13,157 bases of DNA from a bacterium (GTDB lineage: Bacteria; JALSQH01). Positions 1 through 13,157 of the stretch are shown piece by piece; within the stretch, counting starts at the first letter, position 1, and the number at the start of each line of letters is the position of its first letter. Where the stretch lies: NCBI GenBank assembly GCA_026985515.1, contig JALSQH010000110.1, forward strand, positions 1-13,157, in the 5' to 3' direction. The position numbers and the translations under genes are program-made. The notes beneath the pieces were generated by a model. The model was not told the DNA's origin. It saw only the letters and a list, made by a program, of their open reading frames with translations, and ran no database searches.

Positions 1-1050
1 ATGATGGGTCCGGGAGCTGCAGGTACGGCTTATATTCCCGGTCTTGCAGATTTTGTTCCCATGGTTAAAGGGACAAGCAGTATGGCTTTAGGTGGTCCGC
101 CTCTTGTGAGGGCTGTTGTTCATGAGGATATTACAGAAGAAGAGCTGGGAGGTTCAAAGATCCATAATGAGATCAGTGGTTGTGCTGATCTTGAGGTGGA
201 AAATGATGAAGAAATGATAAAAGTCATAAAGAAATATCTGAGTTATTTCCCTCAGCATAACGGAGAATTACCACCAAAGATGGAGTATCCACCAGATCAG
301 GATCCCAATAATATGAGCGATAAAATTCTGGATCTGATACCTGAGAATCCGAGACAGGCATTTAATATGAAAAGATTAATAAAATATATTGTGGATTTTG
401 GGGATTTCTTTGAGATTAAGCCCAAATGGGCAAAGAATATTATTGTTGGTTTTGCCAGAATAGGGGGTTATCCCATAGGTATTGTTGCCAATAATCCAAT
501 GTTTTTAGGTGGAGCTCTCGATGTTAATGCGTCAGATAAGGCTGCCAGATTTATCATGCTTTGTGATGCCTTCAATATTCCTCTTCTTTTTCTTCACGAT
601 GTGCCTGGTTTTATGGTTGGATCCAAAGTTGAAAGGGAGGGTATTATTCGTCATGGTGCAAAGATGCTCTACGCAGTTTCAGAGGCAACAGTGCCGAAAT
701 TTTCAGTGGTTGTTCGTAAATCTTATGGTGCAGGATACTACGTGATGTGTGGTAGGGCATTTGAACCTGATCTGATTGTTGCTTATCCAGGTGCTGAAAT
801 TTCAGTTATGGGTGCAGAAGGTATGGTGGGCATCATGTCCAGGAAATTTGATATGCCCGAAGAGGTCAAAAAACAGATCATTGAGCAAATTAAGCCGTAC
901 ATCAATGCATACAAATCTGCAGGATGGGGTTACATTGACGATGTGATAGATCCAAGAGAAACACGCGATATACTTATCAAAGCTCTTGAATTTACCAGAA
1001 ATAAACAGGTGCTCAGGCCAAAGAAGAAACATGGTGTAATGCCTGTTTAA
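1..1050 (+). CDS. Acyl-CoA carboxylase carboxyltransferase (beta) subunit, 5' end missing
   Basis: This is the C-terminal part (349 residues) of a biotin-dependent acyl-CoA carboxylase carboxyltransferase subunit (PccB/MccB-like, crotonase fold). The family moves a carboxyl group from carboxybiotin to an acyl-CoA such as propionyl-, acetyl- or methylcrotonyl-CoA in the cytoplasm. Visible family segments are GPGAAGTAY at the start, GGPPLV near residue 32, EELGG.K.H near 47, NNPMFLGGALDVNASDKAARF near 165-185, HDVPGFMVG near 200, and the characteristic tail RPKKKHGVMP. Family members are usually about 510-520 residues, so roughly 165 residues lie upstream. The ATG at base 1 aligns inside the family and is probably not the true start. 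The acyl substrate cannot be decided. The GGPPLV segment also occurs in methylcrotonyl-type enzymes. The stop codon overlaps that of the convergent Omp85 gene. Confidence 0.93.
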   Translation: MMGPGAAGTAYIPGLADFVPMVKGTSSMALGGPPLVRAVVHEDITEEELGGSKIHNEISGCADLEVENDEEMIKVIKKYLSYFPQHNGELPPKMEYPPDQDPNNMSDKILDLIPENPRQAFNMKRLIKYIVDFGDFFEIKPKWAKNIIVGFARIGGYPIGIVANNPMFLGGALDVNASDKAARFIMLCDAFNIPLLFLHDVPGFMVGSKVEREGIIRHGAKMLYAVSEATVPKFSVVVRKSYGAGYYVMCGRAFEPDLIVAYPGAEISVMGAEGMVGIMSRKFDMPEEVKKQIIEQIKPYINAYKSAGWGYIDDVIDPRETRDILIKALEFTRNKQVLRPKKKHGVMPV

Positions 1051-3743
1051 ATAAAAGTTTTTATGAGGAAGTAGAGTTGATAAGGGGCTATCCCCTTCTC
1101 TTTGGGAAGGGGATAGCCCACATTAAATGTAATGGGGCCAAGTGGAGTTTTATATTTTAAACCCCAGCCCGCGCCAAATCTCAGAGTAAAATTCTTCATC
1201 TCTGTAAAGTTACTGGGCCATACATTTCCTCCATCATTGAAGATAACAAAAGCAAAGTGATCAAATAGGGGGAAATCTATATCCACCTGATAATCAAACA
1301 TGCTAACTCCTCCCATATGAAGATTCGCACCACTTACAGAACTGTATGTAGCAGAGATTGAATCTTCCGCATAACCTCTCAATGTATATGCACCACCAAT
1401 GTAAAATTTTAGTATATCTGGAAGGTAAATTTTGTTTGAAGAGTAAACTTCACCGGTTTTAACCACTATCTCTGCTGTGACCTTCCTTAAAGAGAGAAAC
1501 CAGGCAAATGTTCCTCTGTATCTGAAATAGTCGAAGTCTGAGTAAAGATTTTTCAAACCCAGATCCAGTGATAGTAACTGGTAATTACCCGATGTGGGCA
1601 TGAAGATATCATTTCTCCTGTCCCGTAAAAAAACCAGATCAAAGTAACCAAGAGTAAATTTTCTCGGACCCGTAAAATTTATGTCGTTTACCTGATAGAA
1701 GTTGTAATTGTCGAGTTCGTAGGTGAATGATAATTCAGTTTTCCCGGAAAATTTTTTAACGATGCCTGCGCCATTTTTGTTGACTGTGTAACTGTATCGG
1801 GTATATTTGCTGTTAATTTCAAGGCTTGAGAAAATCTGAGTGCTCAGGTTGTATCTTGGACTTACTGGCTCTTTGTAGAGGAATGAGATGACACCATATG
1901 AGGGTGGTGTCCACTGGTGCATCAGAGTTTGAAAGTTGCTGTAATCATATTCTGCTTTGTTGTAGAAAGTGATTCTTCTTATACCGCCAAGGAAATACCA
2001 GGTAGAAAATCGTATATCTGTACTGATCCCCTCTTCTGTACCCAGAGCAAAGGAAATGTCAATTGTATTACTCGGTCTTTCCTTTACATCTATGATCAAA
2101 TCAAGTTTATTCCCATGAGGAAGGGTTGATAGTCTTATTGTCCTGAAGTACCCTGTTTCGTACAATCTTGAATAAATGGAGAAATACTTGCTCTGTGAAA
2201 AAGCTTCTCCTTTTCTAATATTGATCTTTTCCCTTATAAATTTTGTGGAAACTTCTTTGTTACCCGAGACAAAGATTTCATCCCAGAAGTATCTTTTCCC
2301 TTCATTTATATAGATTGTCACAGTTGTACGGGCCGGGTCAGTGGTGGAAATAGAGTATCTTACCGAAACATCTTTGAATCCTGAGTTTTTATATAAACTT
2401 GATATTTGACTTACCCCTTTCTCTATCGCAAAAGGGTCAACAGGTTCTCCCTCTTTTAGTTTTAACAATTTTCTCAATTTTTCGTAAGAATAAAATTTTG
2501 CACCTGTTACCATGATATTGTAAAGGATAAATTGTTTTCCCTCCTGTACCGGAACAACAATTCTGAGCCTGTTTCCTCCGTAGATTAAACGTTCCCTTGC
2601 AATCTTTACCTGCAGGAAGCCATTATGTATGTAAAAAGATTTGACTGCCTCAATGTCTTTTTTAAATTCTTCAGGGTCATAACACCTGTGGAAGAAAAGG
2701 TTTAAAGGAAATGAAAAAGGCTTCTGAAACATAACAGATAAGAGTTTTTCTGAAGGTATTTTTTCGTTACCAGTAAAATGAATTTCGCTTACAGGTAATC
2801 TGGGACCCTCTCTAATAATGAAGTTATAAACTTTTATATGTTTTTTCTTCTTTTCCGTTTTTATTTCGATGTGTACCAGGGGAAAACAGTTTTTGTAGTA
2901 CATTTTTTGTAGTCTGTGTTTTAATTCCTGAATGTACCCGTAAGTTATTCTCTTTTTTTTGTTTAAGCCAAGTGTAAAAAATAGTTCTTCTGAAGTGAAG
3001 TACCTGTTACCGGTGAATCTGATTTTTATTTTTTCACCTGGAATAACAACTGCACAGAGAGAAACAGCTTTGATGTATCTGTCAACTCCACAGACCCTGA
3101 TTTCAACTCTGGGATTTAAATATCCTTTTTCCATCAGCTGCTCTGTGAGTCTTGAAATGAAAGAATCTATCTTTTTTTTGCTGTATTCTGTTCCGGTGAG
3201 CTGACTGAGTAATTTTTTGTATCGATCATCTCCCTCGTCAAGGTGGACATTGTAGATCCAGTAAGGAGGTCCCTCTTCGATTTCAATTTTCACTATTCCA
3301 TTTCTCCGGTCAAATAGAATTGAAGATTTACAGTCAAATAACCCCAGAGACGCTGCGTAATTTTTGATGCGTTCAATAGCATAGTCCCGGTAATATGCCT
3401 TCCATTCGTCATCTTCTGAGAAGGGTAAAAGTTTGAGCAACTGTTCTCTGGAAAGCCTGTAGTTTCCTGTAATGATAATTTTTTTTATGTAGGATTTTGC
3501 CACTGGATAGAAAAAAAATGTTTTCCCTTTTTTTACGATTATCAGGTTGGATAGGTTGTGCCGGAGTATCATAAGTTTCAAAAAGTTGTTTAAATCGTCA
3601 GGTGATAACGTTTTGCCTTCCAGTCCCTTAATTTCATTTTTTATCGCTGTGTCCGGGAGCTGTGTGGTTAAAATGACACGGGTTGTAGTTATGTGAAGTG
3701 AAAAAAATAAAATTAAACCTGCCAGGCTACCAGTTAAACTCAT
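1047..3743 (-). CDS. Omp85-family outer-membrane assembly protein (BamA/TamA-like) with about seven POTRA domains
   Basis: This is an outer-membrane beta-barrel protein of the Omp85 superfamily, which folds or inserts other outer-membrane proteins. From the ATG at 3743 it has 898 residues: a signal peptide (SLAGLILFFS core), then about seven consecutive POTRA-like units at roughly 22-82 (degenerate), 83-159, 161-237, 238-314, 316-404, 405-485 and 486-558. Several carry a FTGN, ITGN or VSGN strand-turn, and most end in EGP or EGK. A 16-strand-type barrel follows from about 560 to the end, with the family L6 motif as LRGY in GGAYTLRGYAED and an aromatic end, LIKTFI. TamA usually has three POTRAs and proteobacterial BamA five, so this one is long. 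It overlaps the tamB 3' end by 17 bases, so the two genes are coupled. A TTG at 3788 is an alternative start (913 residues, 62-base overlap); neither has a good Shine-Dalgarno. I favour the ATG because it places the hydrophobic signal at the N-terminus. Whether it is the cell's main BamA or a TamB-dedicated partner cannot be told. Confidence 0.9.
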   Translation of the reverse strand: MSLTGSLAGLILFFSLHITTTRVILTTQLPDTAIKNEIKGLEGKTLSPDDLNNFLKLMILRHNLSNLIIVKKGKTFFFYPVAKSYIKKIIITGNYRLSREQLLKLLPFSEDDEWKAYYRDYAIERIKNYAASLGLFDCKSSILFDRRNGIVKIEIEEGPPYWIYNVHLDEGDDRYKKLLSQLTGTEYSKKKIDSFISRLTEQLMEKGYLNPRVEIRVCGVDRYIKAVSLCAVVIPGEKIKIRFTGNRYFTSEELFFTLGLNKKKRITYGYIQELKHRLQKMYYKNCFPLVHIEIKTEKKKKHIKVYNFIIREGPRLPVSEIHFTGNEKIPSEKLLSVMFQKPFSFPLNLFFHRCYDPEEFKKDIEAVKSFYIHNGFLQVKIARERLIYGGNRLRIVVPVQEGKQFILYNIMVTGAKFYSYEKLRKLLKLKEGEPVDPFAIEKGVSQISSLYKNSGFKDVSVRYSISTTDPARTTVTIYINEGKRYFWDEIFVSGNKEVSTKFIREKINIRKGEAFSQSKYFSIYSRLYETGYFRTIRLSTLPHGNKLDLIIDVKERPSNTIDISFALGTEEGISTDIRFSTWYFLGGIRRITFYNKAEYDYSNFQTLMHQWTPPSYGVISFLYKEPVSPRYNLSTQIFSSLEINSKYTRYSYTVNKNGAGIVKKFSGKTELSFTYELDNYNFYQVNDINFTGPRKFTLGYFDLVFLRDRRNDIFMPTSGNYQLLSLDLGLKNLYSDFDYFRYRGTFAWFLSLRKVTAEIVVKTGEVYSSNKIYLPDILKFYIGGAYTLRGYAEDSISATYSSVSGANLHMGGVSMFDYQVDIDFPLFDHFAFVIFNDGGNVWPSNFTEMKNFTLRFGAGWGLKYKTPLGPITFNVGYPLPKEKGIAPYQLYFLIKTFI
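1084..1120. terminator. Strong hairpin between convergent genes, possible bidirectional transcription barrier
   Basis: The arms gggctatccccttc (1085-1098) and gaaggggatagccc (1106-1119) pair perfectly over 14 bases. On the plus-strand RNA a G-U and a C-G pair extend the stem to 16, leaving a three-base loop (1101-1103). It lies 34 bases after the stop of the carboxyltransferase gene, where its terminator would be expected. It is inside the 3' coding end of the Omp85 gene, encoding the segment GYPLPKEKGIAP. Neither side has a clear U-run, so it is not a textbook intrinsic terminator. It could act as a pause or 3'-end stabilising hairpin. The structure is seen; the role is inferred. Confidence 0.45.
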
Positions 3744-6700
3744 AGTAAAAATGTGGTGACACAGAAAAATTTCCAGGAAATGAACCAAGTTTATTGTCCC
3801 AGCCCACTCCCAGACGTATATTTTGACTTATGATGTAATTTATTTCAAGCTCCTGATAGTCAGAAGTTGAAAATGTTACTCCAAGTTTTGGGGAAAGCCT
3901 TTTGGTTAGTTTTAATTTAAATGTTGAGTGCTTTGAAACATCGGAGAATGAGGGAGAAATTGAAATAACATCAAATCCCATCAATTCTTCCATTTTCCCT
4001 TCCAGTGTTCCAAGCTGATGGCTGAAAATCAGATTTCCTGTTTCAACCACTCCTGTTTGTTTTCCGGTGGCAGGAGTAATGAGAGCTGATGTTTTTACCC
4101 CGAAAACAATCAGAGATATTATGTCGGTTTCCGATAGAGGTGGTTGTGATTCCAGCAGAACCCTTATATTGCTGACAGGTCCCTGTGCAGTTAAGTAGAT
4201 TCGATATGTGTAATTATCCTTCAGATCTTCAATTTCAGCGTTGAATCTTGCGTCTACAAAAGGATCAGGAGGGTACAGGCCCTTGAAATTAATTATACCT
4301 GTTTCCAGGAAGAATTTTCTTTCTCTGAAAATTATACTTCCTTTGAGTAAATCCACGGATCCCACTATTTTCATTCTGTCTGGTGTTCCCTGAAGAATCA
4401 GATCAAATTTTATTTCCATGTCAGCCAGGTTGTTTCTTATGAGGAATCCTCCTTTCGAAAATGTTTTTATATTGAGATGAAGGGATTCGTTTTCTTCATA
4501 TGGGGCGATATTTCTCTTTTTCCTTAAGATTTCTTCCTGAATATTGATCTTTCTTGTTACAAGACCCCTGATTATCTCCACATTTCCACCAAGTAAGGCG
4601 TTTTCAGGTGAACCTGTAAGGCTCAGTTCACCTCCAGCGGTAATGTCTATGCCTTCAAAGGCTGTTATTTCCATATCCTGAAAATCGAAAAATAAATTGT
4701 ATCCAGCAGGCCTGAAATCCTTTACAGGTATTTCTCCTCTGAGTAACCCGGTGCCATTTCCACTGGATACTTTTATTCCGCTCAAAATAATTCTGTTCTC
4801 AGTCACATCAATATCACCATTGAGAAGTACAGGTTGGGGAAAGTCTGAGAGGGTTAGTTTCGAATTTATGAATTCCAGTTTTCCTGATGGTGAAACATCA
4901 CCCCATGGCCCTTTTATCCCCAGATCGAAGGCGAGAAATCCACCTGCTGAACTGATTTGTGGGAAGATGGAAGCTGCATAAAAAAGGTCAAGATAACCTG
5001 AGATGTCAAAATTAATTTGTCTGAACAGGTTAATTCTGGAGTCGATGTATAATTCTCCCCCCGTTCCCTTAAGTTCTCCACTGGCAATAATAATATTTTC
5101 ACCTGCGACATCGAGACGGATATTTCCTTTTAATGAGAAGTTTTCTCTGCTGATAACCACTTCTTTCAATAGGGTTTCACCACCTGTAATACTGAAAGGT
5201 GTAAGAGTGCCTTTCAAACGACCTTTTATCCCTGAGAAGAGATTTACAAATTCCTCTGTTCCAAGATCTCTGCTCCAATCTTTTCTTTTGATATGAATCC
5301 CTGCTATCCATCTGTTTTTGGATATATATACCGCTCCACCCACACTGACGAATCTGTTAAAGAATATAACAAAAAGGTTCATATCAGTGAGTGAAGTGTA
5401 AATATCAGGCTGATGGATGCATATGTTTTTTACACAGATTTTAAAAAATCTTCCATGAGTTATCATCTGAGGGTTTGTGATATCACCCTCAATTTTAAGG
5501 GTTATTTCACCTTCATGGATTTTTACCATATTACCATGTGTGTATGGGAGATTACTTATATACGCAAAAGCTTTCATGTTAATTGAACCATCCTCTCCAA
5601 TCAGTCCCCTTAGAGTAAGTTTGTTCTTCCCCATTCTGAGAATAGTATTATTTACCAGGAATTTCCCCTTTTCTCCAGAAAGATTCAGATTAAGTGAGGC
5701 GTGATTGCCCCATATTTTTCCATTAAAGGATAGTTTCCCCATCAGAGTATGTCCTGGAAATGAGCCAGAGAGCTTAATTTCTCCATCAAGTTTACCCAGA
5801 ATTTTATATTTTCTGCTGATCTGGATGGCCTCTGCAGGAAAATTTTTCATAGATATCTGTATGTTACTGAATTTTTTGGGGGACAGGATGTTGATGAACC
5901 CACCTGCAAAAGCTTCTCCCTTCCCCTTTCTCACTCTCACTGCTAATCTCAAGATATTATCCCTGAGATTAAAAGGTCCATTTAAGAGGTCTGCAGAGAG
6001 AAAGGGTGATCTGAAGTTGCGGATTCCAATTTTTCCAGTGATTACTCTCTCTCCCGGATTTATTTTCCAGCTGATTTTACCAGTCGATTTACCGGAGAGT
6101 CTGGTTAAAAATAGAGAGGATAACTTTTTAAGGGAAAGATTTTCCATACTAAGATTTCCGCTACTTGCCAGGTCATCATATTTAAGAGAAAAATCTGTAA
6201 GTAAGAGTTTCTCTTCACCCTGCCAGATGAATTGAGAAATTTCTATGTGGTCAGCCAGAATTACACCCTCGGCATTAAAACTTCCCTCACCGGGGATTTC
6301 TGTATTTGCTCCATTATTAAGATAGAAGATGGTTCCACGGAAATTTTTTATTTTAAAGGCGAGCTTAAGAGGAGAGTATGTTCCGGTTAGTGAAATTTTT
6401 CCATCCCCTTTCCCTTTCAGTATCTTCTCTGTCCATGGTAGAAGGTGAAAATTTAGACCGGCGACTTCCATTCTGGTAGTGGAAAAAAGTGTAGAAAAAT
6501 TAAGAGAGTAAAAGCCTTTTAACTGGCCACCGGCATATGATATATTTAAGCTGGCAATTTTCAGCCCTGAAGATGTAATTGAGAATCTGGAACTGGTTAT
6601 GGTAAATTTTGCACCTTCAAGGATACCTGTGCTTTTTCTTATGACACCTCTCAACAAAAAAGGTTTTGTACCACCTGCAGTAATTGTTCCCCTTATCTCG

Positions 6701-7491
6701 GCTCTCCCATCTATCGAAGGATAGGGGAATAATTGTTCGTTTAAAAATCTTAAAGAAGAATTTAGTTTGAATTTTATCCTGATTTCAGGGGATTCAAGAT
6801 TTTTGATTGACAATGTATAATTTAAAAAGCCTTCAGGTTTTTTCAGAACGAACAGGCCATCTGATGTCCTGATAGTTTGTCCTTTCTTCGAAAGAAGTGC
6901 AGAACCTTTTAAAATCTCAATTTTCAGGGGACCCTCACTGAAAAAGCTTTCACCTGCATAAAACTTCCCCTTTTTTCTTCTAAGATTGAATGTGAGAGCT
7001 TTTATATTCAGAGAAGTGGAAAAACCATTTTTAACATTTATTTCAAACCTGAGATTTTCAATCAGAAGATCTCCAATTTTAAGTGAAACAGTTTTGCCGC
7101 CCGGGGATTTCTTTTTAAAATGAGGGAAACCTATCAGGTTATAATTCTCGTCCATAGGAAGGTGAATTTTGCCTTTTCTTATGATGAGATGATGAATAAC
7201 AATTTTTTTTCTCATCAAAGCAAGTATGGAATAAACGACGGAAATATGGTGAATATTAAGGATTTCCGAATTTTCACTGTTTCGCAAAACAATGTCTGAT
7301 AGATCAACTGCGGGGTAAACAGGATAAAAATAGATATTACCGATTGAAACTTTTAATCCTTCCTTTGCTGCAACTGATGGGATTTTTTCAGATAAATAGG
7401 GTGCCAGTATGTAGTTTAGAAAAATATATTCACCTGCTACAAAAAGGAAAATGGCAATTATAAGATAACGGAAGAAATTGCGAATCAGCAA
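3727..7491 (-). CDS. tamB: TamB-family inner-membrane-anchored periplasm-spanning protein
   Basis: This 1254-residue protein belongs to the TamB/AsmA-like group. These proteins anchor in the inner membrane and span the periplasm as a long beta-taco groove, working with an Omp85 partner in outer-membrane protein assembly and, in the family, in lipid transport. The N-terminus is a signal anchor (residues about 8-30, core YLIIAIFLFVAGEYIFL). The middle is long beta-rich sequence with repeated strand pairs. The last 300 or so residues match the TamB C-terminal (DUF490) pattern, with SETDIISLIVFG, an amphipathic strand series, and the end HFYYEFNW. The start is TTG, because the codon just before it is a TAA stop and no earlier start is possible. 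The Shine-Dalgarno is weak (GGGA). It lies 27 bases after the tRNA-Gly 3' end and overlaps the next gene, so tRNA, tamB and the Omp85 gene probably form one transcription unit. Confidence 0.93.
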   Translation of the reverse strand: MLIRNFFRYLIIAIFLFVAGEYIFLNYILAPYLSEKIPSVAAKEGLKVSIGNIYFYPVYPAVDLSDIVLRNSENSEILNIHHISVVYSILALMRKKIVIHHLIIRKGKIHLPMDENYNLIGFPHFKKKSPGGKTVSLKIGDLLIENLRFEINVKNGFSTSLNIKALTFNLRRKKGKFYAGESFFSEGPLKIEILKGSALLSKKGQTIRTSDGLFVLKKPEGFLNYTLSIKNLESPEIRIKFKLNSSLRFLNEQLFPYPSIDGRAEIRGTITAGGTKPFLLRGVIRKSTGILEGAKFTITSSRFSITSSGLKIASLNISYAGGQLKGFYSLNFSTLFSTTRMEVAGLNFHLLPWTEKILKGKGDGKISLTGTYSPLKLAFKIKNFRGTIFYLNNGANTEIPGEGSFNAEGVILADHIEISQFIWQGEEKLLLTDFSLKYDDLASSGNLSMENLSLKKLSSLFLTRLSGKSTGKISWKINPGERVITGKIGIRNFRSPFLSADLLNGPFNLRDNILRLAVRVRKGKGEAFAGGFINILSPKKFSNIQISMKNFPAEAIQISRKYKILGKLDGEIKLSGSFPGHTLMGKLSFNGKIWGNHASLNLNLSGEKGKFLVNNTILRMGKNKLTLRGLIGEDGSINMKAFAYISNLPYTHGNMVKIHEGEITLKIEGDITNPQMITHGRFFKICVKNICIHQPDIYTSLTDMNLFVIFFNRFVSVGGAVYISKNRWIAGIHIKRKDWSRDLGTEEFVNLFSGIKGRLKGTLTPFSITGGETLLKEVVISRENFSLKGNIRLDVAGENIIIASGELKGTGGELYIDSRINLFRQINFDISGYLDLFYAASIFPQISSAGGFLAFDLGIKGPWGDVSPSGKLEFINSKLTLSDFPQPVLLNGDIDVTENRIILSGIKVSSGNGTGLLRGEIPVKDFRPAGYNLFFDFQDMEITAFEGIDITAGGELSLTGSPENALLGGNVEIIRGLVTRKINIQEEILRKKRNIAPYEENESLHLNIKTFSKGGFLIRNNLADMEIKFDLILQGTPDRMKIVGSVDLLKGSIIFRERKFFLETGIINFKGLYPPDPFVDARFNAEIEDLKDNYTYRIYLTAQGPVSNIRVLLESQPPLSETDIISLIVFGVKTSALITPATGKQTGVVETGNLIFSHQLGTLEGKMEELMGFDVISISPSFSDVSKHSTFKLKLTKRLSPKLGVTFSTSDYQELEINYIISQNIRLGVGWDNKLGSFPGNFSVSPHFYYEFNW

Positions 7492-7518: not shown

Positions 7519-7593
<75 letters not shown>

Positions 7594-7632: not shown

Positions 7633-7647
7633 GTTCAGAAATGCAGT

Positions 7648-8912: not shown

Positions 8913-10175
8913 ATGAGCGAATATTTTGCCCTTGTAGATTGTAACAATTTTTATGTTTCCTGTGAGCAGGTCTTTAATCCTTCTCTCCGGGGAAAGGCTG
9001 TGGTTGTTCTGTCAAATAATGATGGTTGTGTGATCTCCAGATCTCAGGAGGCAAAGGCTGCAGGTATTAAAATGGGCCAGCCTTTCTTTGAAATTGAAAA
9101 AATGGTAGAGGAAGGCAGGGTTATTGCTCTTTCAGCAAATTTTACCCTGTATGGAGATATGTCCAGGAGGGTAATGGAAACACTTTCTTTTTTCAGTCCC
9201 TTTGTGGAGATTTATTCTATTGATGAAGCTTTCTTACTGCTTGATAATAATGATGTGGATGACCTTTTAAAATATGGGGAAGGTATAAAGGAGTATGTGT
9301 ATAGATGGACAGGAATACCTGTGGCAGTTGGCATAGCCCCCACCAAAACTCTTGCCAAGGTTGCCACATATATTGCAAAACATGATTCTCCGAAGAGCGT
9401 GGTTTTCATAAGAAGGGGAGAAGATCTTAATCCTTACCTTGAAAAGGTGCCTGTGGAGGAGATATGGGGGATTGGAAGAAGTTACTCAGAATTTTTGCAA
9501 TTAAAGGGAGTTAAAACTGCCGCTGATTTTGTTAAGTTGCCTGAACAGTGGGTGAAAAGGTACATGAAAATAAATGGTGTAAGAACATGGAGGGAACTGC
9601 AGGGAAAGAAAGTGTTTTCCCTTTCGGAGAGGAGCATAAGAAAATCTTTCATAACTTCAAGGACCTTTGGAGAACCTGTTGAGGATTTTGAGAGTCTGAA
9701 GTCTTCCATTATTACTTTTATGAAAATGTCAGTTGAGAGACTCAGGGAAGAGGGTTACCTTGCCTCGGAGGTAACAATATTTATTTCAAGCAGCCTGCAT
9801 GTGAAGGATATTTACAGGTCTGCCATTGTTGAAAATCTTCAGTCTCCCACAGATTACCTGCCAGATTTAATAGCCCCTGTGGAGGATATGTTAAAAAGGA
9901 TTTACAGGAAGGGAGTGAAATACAGAAAAGCTGGAGTGGTACTATCTGGATTGATAAGGAAGGAGAATTATCAGTATGAACTTTTTACACCAGCAGAGGT
10001 TGTGAGGAGAAAGGAGAATTTGATGGCTGCAATAGAGGAAATTTCTGGAAAATTTGGGAGGGACTCAATTAAACTTGGAGGAGAATCTCTATCCAGCAGG
10101 TGGAAATCAGTCCAGAAACACCTCTCAAGAAGATACACAACTTCCTGGGATGGGATTCCGGTGGTGAGGGGGTAG
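8913..10175 (+). CDS. umuC: UmuC-like Y-family translesion DNA polymerase
   Basis: This full-length (420 residues; E. coli UmuC 422) catalytic subunit of a polymerase V-type enzyme copies past damaged template bases. Metal-binding residues are present: D9 in LVDCNNFY, and D104 and E105 in YSIDEAF. The steric-gate tyrosine is Y14. Other family segments are VLSNNDGCVISR, GIAPTKTLAKVA, VEEIWGIGR (helix-hairpin-helix region) and SRTFGEPV (little finger). QYELF at 354-358 matches the beta-clamp motif QLNLF of E. coli UmuC. The end LSRRYTTSWDGIP is the typical UmuC C-terminal (DUF4113) tail. It begins three bases after the umuD stop with only a weak ribosome site, so translation is probably coupled. 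Nothing suggests loss of polymerase activity. Confidence 0.96.
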   Translation: MSEYFALVDCNNFYVSCEQVFNPSLRGKAVVVLSNNDGCVISRSQEAKAAGIKMGQPFFEIEKMVEEGRVIALSANFTLYGDMSRRVMETLSFFSPFVEIYSIDEAFLLLDNNDVDDLLKYGEGIKEYVYRWTGIPVAVGIAPTKTLAKVATYIAKHDSPKSVVFIRRGEDLNPYLEKVPVEEIWGIGRSYSEFLQLKGVKTAADFVKLPEQWVKRYMKINGVRTWRELQGKKVFSLSERSIRKSFITSRTFGEPVEDFESLKSSIITFMKMSVERLREEGYLASEVTIFISSSLHVKDIYRSAIVENLQSPTDYLPDLIAPVEDMLKRIYRKGVKYRKAGVVLSGLIRKENYQYELFTPAEVVRRKENLMAAIEEISGKFGRDSIKLGGESLSSRWKSVQKHLSRRYTTSWDGIPVVRG

Positions 10176-10221
10176 TTATCCCTGAATTGATATAAGGTAT
10201 TAACCAGAATAAGTGGTAAAC

Positions 10222-10251
10222 TTGACAGAAATTAAAAATTTGTTCTATACT
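10222..10251 (+). promoter_or_regulatory. Strong sigma70-type promoter of the repeat-controlled operon
   Basis: A perfect TTGACA (10222-10227), an 18-base spacer and TATACT (10246-10251) give a near-consensus promoter with a start near 10258. It lies in the 103-base gap after umuC. It serves the ATG at 10279, about 20 bases downstream, through the ribosome site AGGGGG (10268-10273), five bases before that ATG. Confidence 0.8.
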
Positions 10252-10278
10252 TTTTATGAATGATAACAGGGGGTAAAA

Positions 10279-10374
10279 ATGAAGCTTAACCAACCAACCA
10301 ACCTACCTACCTACTTACCTGAAACACATCTTTGGATACTTTTTCCTGATTATTTCTTTTCTTTTACTCAGTGA
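10279..10374 (+). CDS. 31-codon OFF-state reading frame ahead of the repeat-controlled gene
   Basis: The ATG at 10279 has the best ribosome binding site in the region (AGGGGG, five-base spacing) and lies just after a strong promoter. As written, its frame reads MKLNQPTNLPTYLPETHL and stops at TGA 10372-10374. The frame passes through the tetranucleotide repeat and ends just before the downstream coding frame becomes a clear protein. I read it as the truncated product of an out-of-frame repeat state, not as a functional peptide, though a leader-peptide role is not excluded. Confidence 0.6.
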   Translation: MKLNQPTNLPTYLPETHLWILFPDYFFSFTQ

Positions 10375-12592
10375 TTTACCTCTTGAAGCACATCCTTCTC
10401 ATGGAAATCATAATGGAAATCACCATGGAGGATATGGATATTGTGGTACTCAGGTAACACTTAATGTTCCTTCATCCATCTGGGTTGGTAATATGCTGCA
10501 AAACAGGGGTCAGATTACCCTTGATGGTGAAGGAAGCAATATAGTCATCGGAAAGGATCTGCATAATTGCGGTGTTATCAGAAGTAATGCAGAACTGTTC
10601 TGTCGGAGAATTCACAGGGAAGGGGAGCTGGATGTTGAGGATGTGATTGAGAAGCATAAATGTATCAAAGGTCCCGATAATCTTTTTGAGAGGAATTATG
10701 GCAGAAGGATTTCTGATGCGACATATATATTTTCTGATTCGGGAGAGGTGACTCAGGATGGAGAGATTGTTGGTTATGGTGAATTCACTACTGGAGGGGT
10801 AACATTCAGATGGGATGGAGATGAGTGGATTATAGAGGGACAGGGTTATATAAGGGGAAGTGCCGTTTTTGAAAGTGGGGTAAAGATGAATGGTGCATGG
10901 GTGGATTTACTTGGGGATCTGAGTGTGAATGGAGCGTTAATTATTGATAGCGAGAGCACTCTTATTCTTCAAAGTATTGAGTGGCCAGGGTTGCTTGTCA
11001 GGGGTATGTTGAGAGTTGATGGATATGGGAGATTTAATACCGGTATTTACACAGGTCAGATGATGACAGGTTTCAATGCAGAGGTTGAGATATACGGAGG
11101 GCTTTTCGTGGCACACAACTTGCATAATAAAGGTAAGATGAAGGTTAAGTTCAGTCAGATGGTGATGAGAAGAATAGCAGAGAGGATCAAGCAACTTGAA
11201 GATGAAGAAGATAAGCAACTGCTGAGTGTGCAATATGCTGATGGAATTACGATGTTTGCTGGAGCGGGAATAGCTATTTTTGCATCCAGAAGAGGTAGCC
11301 TGGATGAAATTATGGCAGGTGAAATAACGGATGTTTCATACAGGATACTGGGTACTACAAGAAAACTTGGAGTTGATCTTGGAGGAGGCCTGGTACCTCC
11401 ACAGGTAATAGCATATGGTTTTATTGAGAATCTGAAACAGTCGGGTTATAAGCAACCGGTTTTACTAAAACTTTATTATTTGCCTCCTGACTTCTTTTAT
11501 GGAGAGTTTATGGATGCTTCAGATGGGGAATATATTGGAATATATCAGCTTGGAGATGGTTACAGGAAGGTTGATAAGGCTTTTTTTGAAGAAGTTGAAA
11601 TGGACCTGGAAAAGTGGTATGCCAGTTTACCAGTAACTATTTCAGAGGAATGGCAGCATCAAAGGGATCTGGAGTGGGAGGAGTTTTTGAGACCGGTGAG
11701 TGGAACAGCGAGTTTCGGTACAGAAAGTAGATTATTAAATTCAAAATTTGGAACGATGTCGTTCTTGGGTGGGTGTTATATAAAATATGACCATAGATAT
11801 ACTGTAACAGGTTTCAAAAAATGGAAGGTACTTGATGAAAACCTTTGGGATTCTTTATACCAGGTTATATTTGATGCTTCAAGTCTGAGTAAGGGAGATT
11901 ATAAGATTGGTTGTTCACCTGTATCGGCAGCTCTAATTTTTAGATATTGGGGTTGGAGAAATAGTAATTATAATTCCTGTCTCCCTGACAATAGGAATCT
12001 TTTAATTGATCTTCATAAAGCAATGAAGACAACGGATGATGGAGGAACAGAAAATGAAAATATAGCACCTGGTATAAAAAGTGTTGCGCAAAAGTATGGT
12101 ATGGAATTTAGAACAGGAGGGAAAGAGTTTTGGTGGAAGTCTCCATACAATTTTATTAGGGACGAAATACTGAGAGACAGACCTGTACACCATTCTTATT
12201 ATACTGCAAAGATGCTAAAGAAAGGAATGGGTCATTCAGCGGTGGCGTATGGTGTCAGGCATGTGAAAAGAGTTTATAAAACCTCTATCGGTACCAATGA
12301 CAGTCTATGTGCAGATAGGCATTATGTAGAAATTATATATTCTGCCGAAGCGGATTATGAAGAAAATCCACTTGGTTTTGGTGAGCATAGATTGGATATA
12401 TGGGCTGCACCGCCAGGCTGGTATGATGTTGTAGTTATTCCTGTTCATGGATGTCCTTCCGGAGGAGGGGGTGGTGGAGGAGGTGGTGGATGTAGCGAAA
12501 CACCAGGTCAGGATGAAGTGACCATTTTCTTTGCTGTTTATATGTGGATATTTTTAGTTAAAAGAAGGACACTCAACAAAAAGCATAGATGA
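10279..12592 (+). CDS. Candidate phase-variable surface protein: signal peptide, beta-solenoid, C39-like peptidase, Gly10-Cys sorting tail (OFF as written)
   Basis: The coding frame is open from 10283 to the stop at 12592 but lacks a standard start before ATG 10493. It is one base out of phase with ATG 10279. Upstream of 10493 it encodes a signal peptide (core GYFFLIISFLLL, likely cleavage after PLEA) and a His/Gly-rich mature start (HPSHGNHNGNHHGG). Numbering from the ATG at 10493, a motif [IV]-x3-L-[HQ]-N-x-G-x-[IM] recurs three times (VGNMLQNRGQI, IGKDLHNCGVI, VAHNLHNKGKM) within a beta-rich region up to about 220, suggesting a solenoid. A charged helix follows (about 225-245), then unrecognised sequence. 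A C39-like cysteine peptidase follows, with Cys474 in GCSPVSAALIFRYWGW and His581 in GMGHSAVAYG. The tail has ten Gly (657-666), Cys667, a hydrophobic segment (VTIFFAVYMWIFLV) and basic residues. The first solenoid motif starts before 10493, so that ATG is not the natural start. No close family is recognised. The peptidase assignment rests on motif shape. Confidence 0.7.
10288..10319 (+). repeat. Tetranucleotide repeat, eight WACC-type units, candidate phase-variation tract
   Basis: There are eight contiguous 4-base units: AACC four times, TACC twice, TACT once and TACC once. The tract begins nine bases after the A of the ATG. Because four is not a multiple of three, each unit gained or lost shifts the frame. 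The distance from the ATG to the downstream coding frame is one base out of phase (214 bases to 10493). Losing one unit, or gaining two, would put the ATG in frame with the signal peptide. Tetranucleotide tracts at 5' coding ends drive phase variation in Haemophilus and Neisseria surface genes. Confidence 0.8.
12461..12580 (+). other. C-terminal sorting-like tail: poly-Gly, Cys, membrane segment, basic end
   Basis: Ten consecutive glycine codons, using GGA, GGG and GGT in mixed order, lie between Cys654 and Cys667. The sequence then continues SETPGQDE, a hydrophobic stretch of about 14 residues (VTIFFAVYMWIFLV) and KRRTLNKKHR. The order of Gly-Cys, transmembrane segment and positive cluster resembles tripartite C-terminal sorting signals such as MYXO-CTERM, GlyGly-CTERM and Synergist-CTERM. 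In some of these a dedicated intramembrane protease processes the tail and the Cys is the anchor site. The mixed codons argue for selection on the protein and against recent slippage. Confidence 0.5.
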
Positions 12593-12602
12593 GGGGATAA
12601 GA

Positions 12603-13157
12603 ATGAGAAAATTCAGAGTCTTACAAAAGTTGAGAGTTTTTTCATTTTTAATGATAGTTTTATCTCTAATTTTAGGAGAAGGTTGTAATCATGAACATTG
12701 CTGTATGTTACCTCATCCTGAAGCACTTGATAATGGATTTTTGCTGAGATTGAGTAACGGAAAAATTATTTTTATGGATCCAATAGGTATATATAAATAT
12801 GATGAAGATGGTAATGGCGTGGCCTATCAGAGAAAGCTGCTATTTGATCTCTCCGGAACAGAACCTGTGCTGTATAAGAAATTTGACTTTGTCGGGAAAT
12901 TTAATCTTTACGAACCACTTTCTTCTTGGAAAAACTGGTATATTTTTTATAGATTAAAGCCTCAAAGTGACTGGATTGGAGTTAATGTAAGGGATACAAC
13001 AAGTTATCTTTTTAATGTTGCTACCTCAGCATCTATCAGAGTGACAGATGTCACATATTTCCCATGGGGAACATATAATGTTCCAGTTTCCTTTGCAGTG
13101 AATGGTCGGTATACAATATGGGAATTTCATTTTAGTGAATTATGTGAAAAAATTGAA
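12603..13157 (+). CDS. Secreted or lipidated protein of unknown function, 3' end beyond the window
   Basis: The frame is open for 185 codons to the window edge with no stop. I do not recognise the family. The N-terminus has a basic start (MRKFRVLQKLRVF) and a hydrophobic core (SFLMIVLSLIL), followed by GEGC. The Cys could be a lipoprotein lipidation site, but the preceding residues do not fit the usual lipobox well. A short His/Cys-rich patch follows (CNHEHCC), then beta-rich sequence with many aromatic residues (for example WKNWYIFYRL near residue 120). The start is supported by GAGGGG at 12591-12596, six bases before the ATG. It begins 10 bases after the stop of the upstream surface-protein gene, so the two are almost certainly cotranscribed and may work together at the cell surface. 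Confidence 0.8.
   Translation, partial: MRKFRVLQKLRVFSFLMIVLSLILGEGCNHEHCCMLPHPEALDNGFLLRLSNGKIIFMDPIGIYKYDEDGNGVAYQRKLLFDLSGTEPVLYKKFDFVGKFNLYEPLSSWKNWYIFYRLKPQSDWIGVNVRDTTSYLFNVATSASIRVTDVTYFPWGTYNVPVSFAVNGRYTIWEFHFSELCEKIE

What the first reader, a model, noticed from the sequence alone, without database searches (positions are those of the whole stretch)
10279..10374. Tetranucleotide repeat places a strong ATG one base out of frame with a surface-protein gene: likely phase variation, captured OFF
A near-consensus promoter, an AGGGGG ribosome site and an ATG lead into eight 4-base units (AACC x4, TACC x2, TACT, TACC). The ATG frame stops after 31 codons. The frame one base over encodes a textbook signal peptide and a long open frame to 12592 that has no good start of its own. 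Removing exactly one repeat unit gives MKLNQPTYLPTYLK joined to the signal peptide. The encoded protein looks surface-anchored, the usual target of phase variation. The geometry is directly visible; switching is inferred. The mixed units and small copy number would make slippage slower than in Haemophilus tracts.
Basis: partly seen in the sequence, partly recalled or inferred. Interest (0 to 1): 0.88.

Follow-up and report, generated by a model that had tools for sequence, protein, structure and literature searches.

The report
Repeat switch on surface-protein gene family
A short four-letter DNA repeat at the start of a surface-protein gene, and of its sister genes in the same uncultured bacterium, throws the start codon out of frame, which is how better-known bacteria randomly turn surface proteins on and off.

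Summary
ATG 10279 follows a promoter and ribosome site, runs through eight tetranucleotide units (10288-10319) and stops after 31 codons. The signal-peptide frame, open to 12592, has no ATG/GTG/TTG before 10493.

The genome holds paralogues. C96 is 95% identical over about 950 bp but has six units, so its ATG is out of frame in the other register; its other coding indels are compensated. C168, only 30% identical, has six units of a different repeat (CTCA) at the same place. A homologue in a second genus keeps promoter, ATG and an offset, with two degenerate units. In 1.27 Mb (54%) of the genome, the only exact period-4 runs of 14 bp or more are in these genes.

This fits translational phase variation by slippage, as at Haemophilus influenzae tetranucleotide loci. 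The protein carries a myxosortase-type C-terminal tag and the genome encodes a myxosortase, so surface display is plausible. Promoter, repeat and N-domain form a cassette shared by paralogues whose C-terminal parts diverge.

Not shown: switching itself, or any ON copy (all four are OFF; about 0.2 by chance). Programmed frameshifting fits poorly because offsets are both +1 and +2. New member of a known kind, in a lineage with only one other held relative.

The parts
10222..10251 (+). sigma-70-like promoter, TTGACA-18-TATACT
   Evidence: TTGACA is kept at -57, -58, -63 and -59 from the ATG in the window, C96, C168 and G001
10268..10273 (+). Shine-Dalgarno AGGGGG
   Evidence: sequence; purine-rich site also before the ATG in the three relatives
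10279..10374 (+). short OFF reading frame from ATG, 31 codons and stop
10288..10319 (+). tetranucleotide tract of 8 units (AACC x4, TACC x2, TACT, TACC); proposed slippage site that sets the frame
   Evidence: six units in paralogue C96
10319..12592 (+). main reading frame (757 codons and stop), out of frame with the ATG at 8 units: signal peptide, N-terminal domain, Cys/His peptidase-like region, Gly-rich linker, C-terminal sorting tag
10319..10390 (+). signal peptide region (LKHIFGYFFLIISFLLLSDLPLEA)
   Evidence: read from the translation; conserved in C96 with compensated indels
10217..11169 (+). cassette nearly identical among paralogues (95-97%): promoter, tract, signal peptide and N-terminal domain; identity falls to about 60% after it
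11900..12330 (+). C39/papain-like cysteine peptidase-like region (GCSPVSAALIFRYW, GHSAVAYG, ADRHYV)
   Evidence: Cys, His and Asp/His positions invariant in four copies; no Pfam hit, so family by motif resemblance only
12454..12589 (+). Gly-rich linker, Cys, hydrophobic helix and basic tail: CTERM-type sorting tag
   Evidence: JDVT-CTERM model E 0.003, below its cut-off
12603..13157 (+). downstream lipoprotein-like gene, runs off the contig; probably on the same transcript
   Evidence: lipoprotein-like genes also follow the copies on C65, C168/C11 and G001

Best explanation
A translational phase-variation (contingency) locus. Gain or loss of 4-base units by slippage during replication shifts the ATG in or out of frame with an exported, probably surface-anchored protein. 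In the assembled sequence the window copy has 8 units and is OFF, giving a 31-residue peptide; unit counts of 7 or 10 would put the ATG in frame with the signal peptide. At least two paralogues carry the same kind of arrangement, so cells could display none or different members of the family. Shown: geometry, unit-number difference between near-identical copies, frame conservation downstream, an independent repeat in a diverged copy, and rarity of such repeats elsewhere in the genome. Inferred: slippage as the cause, switching in the living population, and surface display.
For: Window 8 units and C96 6 units, the only indel of unit size in about 950 aligned bases at 95% identity. Single-base indels downstream in C96 are compensated within a few bases, so the signal-peptide and body frames stay open. 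Between window and C96 there are 11 synonymous and 16 nonsynonymous codon differences in the cassette, against 7.9 and 23.9 expected at random, a mild bias; the diverged body (about 60% DNA identity) stays open over 757 and 775 codons. C168 has a 26-bp perfect CTCA tract at the same place, with its signal-peptide frame offset from the ATG. Offsets are +1, +2, +2 and +1 in window, C96, C168 and G001. No other exact period-4 run of 14 bp or more in 1.27 Mb. The position just after the start codon is that of H. influenzae tetranucleotide repeats (PMC2651432).
Against: No copy is seen in the ON register: four of four OFF, about 0.2 by chance. No reads were available. Window units are mixed, with at most 16 bp perfect, which should slip slowly. 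C168 has further frame breaks at about 7640 and 9588, so it may be a relic. The G001 homologue is a short remnant with two degenerate units. The C65 copy lost its 5' end at a contig end where it is identical to the window, so the window's 5' part could be a merged consensus of two copies.
Confidence: 0.76

Rival explanations
1. The genes are silent: former switches now locked OFF, or pseudogenes kept as donors of sequence.
For: All four copies with a 5' end are OFF; C168 has more frame breaks and G001 is a remnant; window units are mixed.
Against: The 757- and 775-codon frames of window and C96 are open despite strong divergence of the body, with compensated indels and a conserved promoter and ribosome site.
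Confidence: 0.12
2. The protein is made constitutively without a unit change, by a non-standard start (CTG 10319 would give MKHIFGYFF...) or by recoding such as frameshifting in the repeat.
For: CTG 10319 is followed by a plausible signal peptide in window and C96.
Against: No ribosome site before CTG 10319; C168 has no equivalent start with a charged n-region. A single programmed shift cannot serve offsets of both +1 and +2. The strong ribosome site and ATG upstream would be pointless.
Confidence: 0.08
3. Assembly or base-call artefact, including collapse of paralogues, produced the window's unit count.
For: C65 breaks where it is identical to the window, so reads of the two copies may have been merged; draft of 268 contigs.
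Against: A 32-bp tract is well within an ordinary read. C96 and C168 independently have tracts, also out of frame. Such repeats are absent elsewhere in the surveyed genome.
Confidence: 0.04

Closest known systems
Tetranucleotide-repeat phase-variable genes of Haemophilus influenzae, especially the hgp haemoglobin-binding protein paralogues with CCAA tracts (PMC2651432)
   Same: Tract inside the reading frame just after the start; surface products; several paralogues each with a tract; interrupted tracts, which those authors link to recombination between paralogues; CCAA is also part of the window tract.
   Different: Fewer units (6-8); unrelated protein family; uncultured lineage; no strain panel or reads to show variation. 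The window mixes CCAA- and CCTA-type units.
MYXO-CTERM / JDVT-CTERM proteins sorted by myxosortase-family proteases (PMC11980579)
   Same: Cys motif, hydrophobic helix and basic tail at the C-terminus. The genome has one MYXO-CTERM and one JDVT-CTERM tail above cut-off, and a protease over the Mrt core cut-off.
   Different: The window's tail scores below the curated cut-offs; cleavage and lipidation untested.
C39/papain-like cysteine peptidases
   Same: Cys-, His- and Asp-containing motifs invariant in four copies.
   Different: No Pfam hit; one copy only weakly matches an NCBIfam putative cysteine peptidase model, below cut-off.

Membership tests
Tetranucleotide-repeat translational phase-variable locus | Tandem repeat with unit length not a multiple of 3, inside the coding region near the start | tested here: met
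   8 units at 10288-10319, starting 9 bases into the frame from ATG 10279
Tetranucleotide-repeat translational phase-variable locus | Tract length beyond chance for the genome | tested here: met
   Clear for C96 (24 bp) and C168 (26 bp), longest chance run 17 bp in 20 simulations; window 16 bp exact, 32 bp imperfect, marginal alone
Tetranucleotide-repeat translational phase-variable locus | Unit number differs between alleles or relatives | tested here: met
   8 against 6 units between paralogues at 95% identity; alleles of the same locus not available
Tetranucleotide-repeat translational phase-variable locus | An ON allele exists | tested here: inconclusive
   None among the four copies seen, about 0.2 by chance if a third of alleles are ON; other alleles of the same locus could not be sampled
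Tetranucleotide-repeat translational phase-variable locus | Reversible switching in a growing population | not testable with these tools
   no reads, no culture
MYXO-CTERM / JDVT-CTERM sorted protein | C-terminal model score over curated cut-off | tested here: not met
   JDVT-CTERM 17.4 bits against 27
MYXO-CTERM / JDVT-CTERM sorted protein | Cognate intramembrane protease in the genome | tested here: met
   C193 protein, Mrt core 124.9 bits against 100
C39/papain-like cysteine peptidase | Family profile match | tested here: not met
   Pfam none at E<=1 for the window protein; motifs only

The most novel reading that the evidence does not exclude
A two-layer variation system: each gene is switched by repeat slippage, and a cassette of promoter, repeat and N-domain is spread by gene conversion over paralogues with different C-terminal parts, so cells draw both the ON/OFF state and the member displayed, in a deep lineage where I found no report of such a system.
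Probability: 0.3. Interest if true: 0.72.

Novelty: new member of a known kind. Interest (0 to 1): 0.62.

Why it matters
Repeat-driven phase variation is known mostly from host-adapted pathogens. Here it appears at a whole gene family in an uncultured lineage with only one other family member among the genomes searched, while such repeats are almost absent from the rest of the surveyed genome. That makes it a sharply testable case of selection keeping a slippage switch, and hints that these cells face phages, predators or partners that recognise surface proteins. It also shows how automatic annotation would start such a gene at a wrong codon (ATG 10493 here) and lose the signal peptide.

Tried and rejected
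Programmed frameshifting: rejected as the general explanation because offsets are +1 and +2 in different copies. Relatives in genome contigs (two scans) and viral contigs (one scan): none confirmed. 98 genomes by protein: only G001 outside the own genome. Other tetranucleotide arrays in the genome: none of 14 bp or more in the 54% surveyed; whole-genome pattern searches for ACCT, TCAC and CCAA tracts found only these loci, apart from one weak 2-mismatch site on C194. AlphaFold on the single sequence gave mean pLDDT 34, so no fold search was made. Pfam, NCBIfam and PDB sequence searches gave no significant family for the window protein. Papers: no report of this family was found in five keyword searches.

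Full report
What was checked. The window is contig C110 of a 2.36 Mb draft genome in 268 contigs, 97.6% complete. Among 98 searched relatives only G001 belongs to the same family; all others share only the domain, so the lineage is isolated in the held set.

Paralogues in the same genome. A DNA search found two more copies of the 5' region. C96 aligns at 95% from 10217 to 11169. It has ATGAAGCTC followed by six units where the window has eight: a difference of exactly two units. Its ATG is therefore out of frame in the other register and stops right after the tract. Other indels in the coding part come as pairs that restore the frame within a few bases, in the signal peptide and near 10750. 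So the frame that is kept is the signal-peptide frame, not the ATG frame. C65 aligns at 97% from 10563 to 11177 but its contig ends there, so its tract is not seen.

A diverged paralogue and a homologue. C168 is about 30% identical in protein. Its start is AAAGGAGGGGTGAA-ATG, followed about 30 bases on by six perfect CTCA units (26 bp, 7531-7556), then a signal peptide in a frame two bases off the ATG. This repeat is unrelated in sequence to that of the window, but sits in the same place. The C168 gene has two further frame breaks, near 7640 and at 9588, so it may be decaying. In G001, a different genus of the family, the homologue is a short gene in which the N-terminus runs directly into the C-terminal tag. 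It keeps TTGACA, a GGGAGG site and ATG, and has two degenerate TCAT units where C168 has its CTCA units; its signal peptide is one base out of frame.

Shared layout. In all four loci TTGACA lies 57 to 63 bases before the ATG, a purine-rich ribosome site precedes the ATG, and the ATG is out of frame with the signal peptide: +1, +2, +2, +1. Mixed offsets argue against a single programmed frameshift. If each locus spends a third of its time in frame, four OFF out of four has a chance of about 0.2, which is unremarkable but means no ON copy has been seen.

How unusual the repeats are. I took 145 stretches covering 1.27 Mb, 54% of the genome. The only exact period-4 runs of 14 bp or more are in window, C96 and C168, which are also the only family members of this genome whose 5' ends are assembled. 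The genome otherwise has slightly fewer period-4 runs than a first-order Markov model predicts, and 20 simulated copies gave nothing longer than 17 bp, against 24 and 26 bp observed. Whole-genome pattern searches for the three unit types found these loci, plus one weak two-mismatch site on C194. The window's own tract is interrupted and its longest exact run is 16 bp.

The protein. The main frame has a signal peptide, a conserved N-terminal domain (in C168 a weak, below-cut-off resemblance to bactofilin), a region with GCSPVSAALIFRYW, GHSAVAYG and ADRHYV motifs invariant in their Cys, His and Asp/His positions across four copies, a Gly-rich linker, and a Cys-helix-basic tail. The motifs resemble C39/papain-like cysteine peptidases (from general knowledge), but no profile confirms this. 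The tail resembles JDVT-CTERM (17.4 bits, cut-off 27). Other proteins of the genome carry tails over the JDVT-CTERM (30.3 against 27) and MYXO-CTERM (21.6 against 20) cut-offs, and a protein on C193 passes the myxosortase core cut-off (124.9 against 100). In Myxococcus xanthus such tags lead to surface display (PMC11980579). Surface display here is therefore a reasoned inference.

Cassette structure. Identity between window and C96 is 90-100% per 50 bases over nearly all of 10300-11150, then falls at once to about 60%. Window against C65 falls at the same place. Promoter, tract, signal peptide and N-domain thus behave as one unit shared by paralogues with different C-terminal parts, which suggests gene conversion. 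Interrupted tetranucleotide tracts in H. influenzae hgp paralogues were attributed to recombination between paralogues (PMC2651432); the mixed AACC/TACC units of the window could have the same origin.

Mechanism and certainty. I favour translational phase variation by slippage (0.76). Shown: geometry, unit-number difference, independent tract in a diverged copy, rarity of such repeats, and frame conservation. Inferred: slippage, switching in the population, surface display, and any polar effect on the downstream lipoprotein-like gene. Main rivals: locked-off relics (0.12), a CTG start or recoding (0.08), assembly artefact (0.04). A real caveat is that C65 breaks where it is identical to the window, so the window's 5' end may blend reads of two copies.

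Comparison. It works like the tetranucleotide contingency loci of H. influenzae, where tracts also lie in the frame just after the start (PMC2651432). Two membership features, an ON allele and demonstrated switching, could not be settled here, so the firm claim is resemblance in mechanism. The protein family matched nothing in the libraries searched. I rate it a new member of a known kind.

Noticed in passing
10217-11169, against L004 and L005: Promoter-to-N-domain cassette is 95-97% identical between three paralogues and then drops abruptly to about 60%, at the same point in both comparisons; looks like gene conversion.
   Followed up: partly
L020 (C168) about 7640 and 9588: The diverged paralogue has two frame breaks besides the repeat offset; the related copy on C11 (L021) is open through the second point. 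C168 is probably decaying, or misassembled.
   Followed up: partly
L013 (G001:C23) 926-1318, minus strand: In the other genus the homologue is a 123-codon remnant joining the N-terminus to the C-terminal tag (GGCSETEPSD, as in C96), followed by a lipoprotein gene like the one upstream of the C96 copy.
   Followed up: partly
12603-13157; also L004 2438-3727, L005, L021 873-3892: Each copy is accompanied by a lipoprotein-like gene (signal peptide with a Cys), diverse in sequence; no significant Pfam family in those tested. Possibly a co-expressed partner.
   Followed up: no
G000:C193 (L177 1186-1824); tails on L023, L038, L062, L165: A myxosortase-family protease and several MYXO-CTERM/JDVT-CTERM-like tails in this isolated, unnamed lineage.
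   Followed up: partly
L053 (C32) 302-341: A 40-bp array of a 9-base unit (TCTTTCTCC); the unit length is a multiple of 3, so it would change length, not frame.
   Followed up: no
1047-7491, minus strand: Two long adjacent genes that read like an outer-membrane assembly pair (BamA/TamA-like and TamB-like), by eye only.
   Followed up: no
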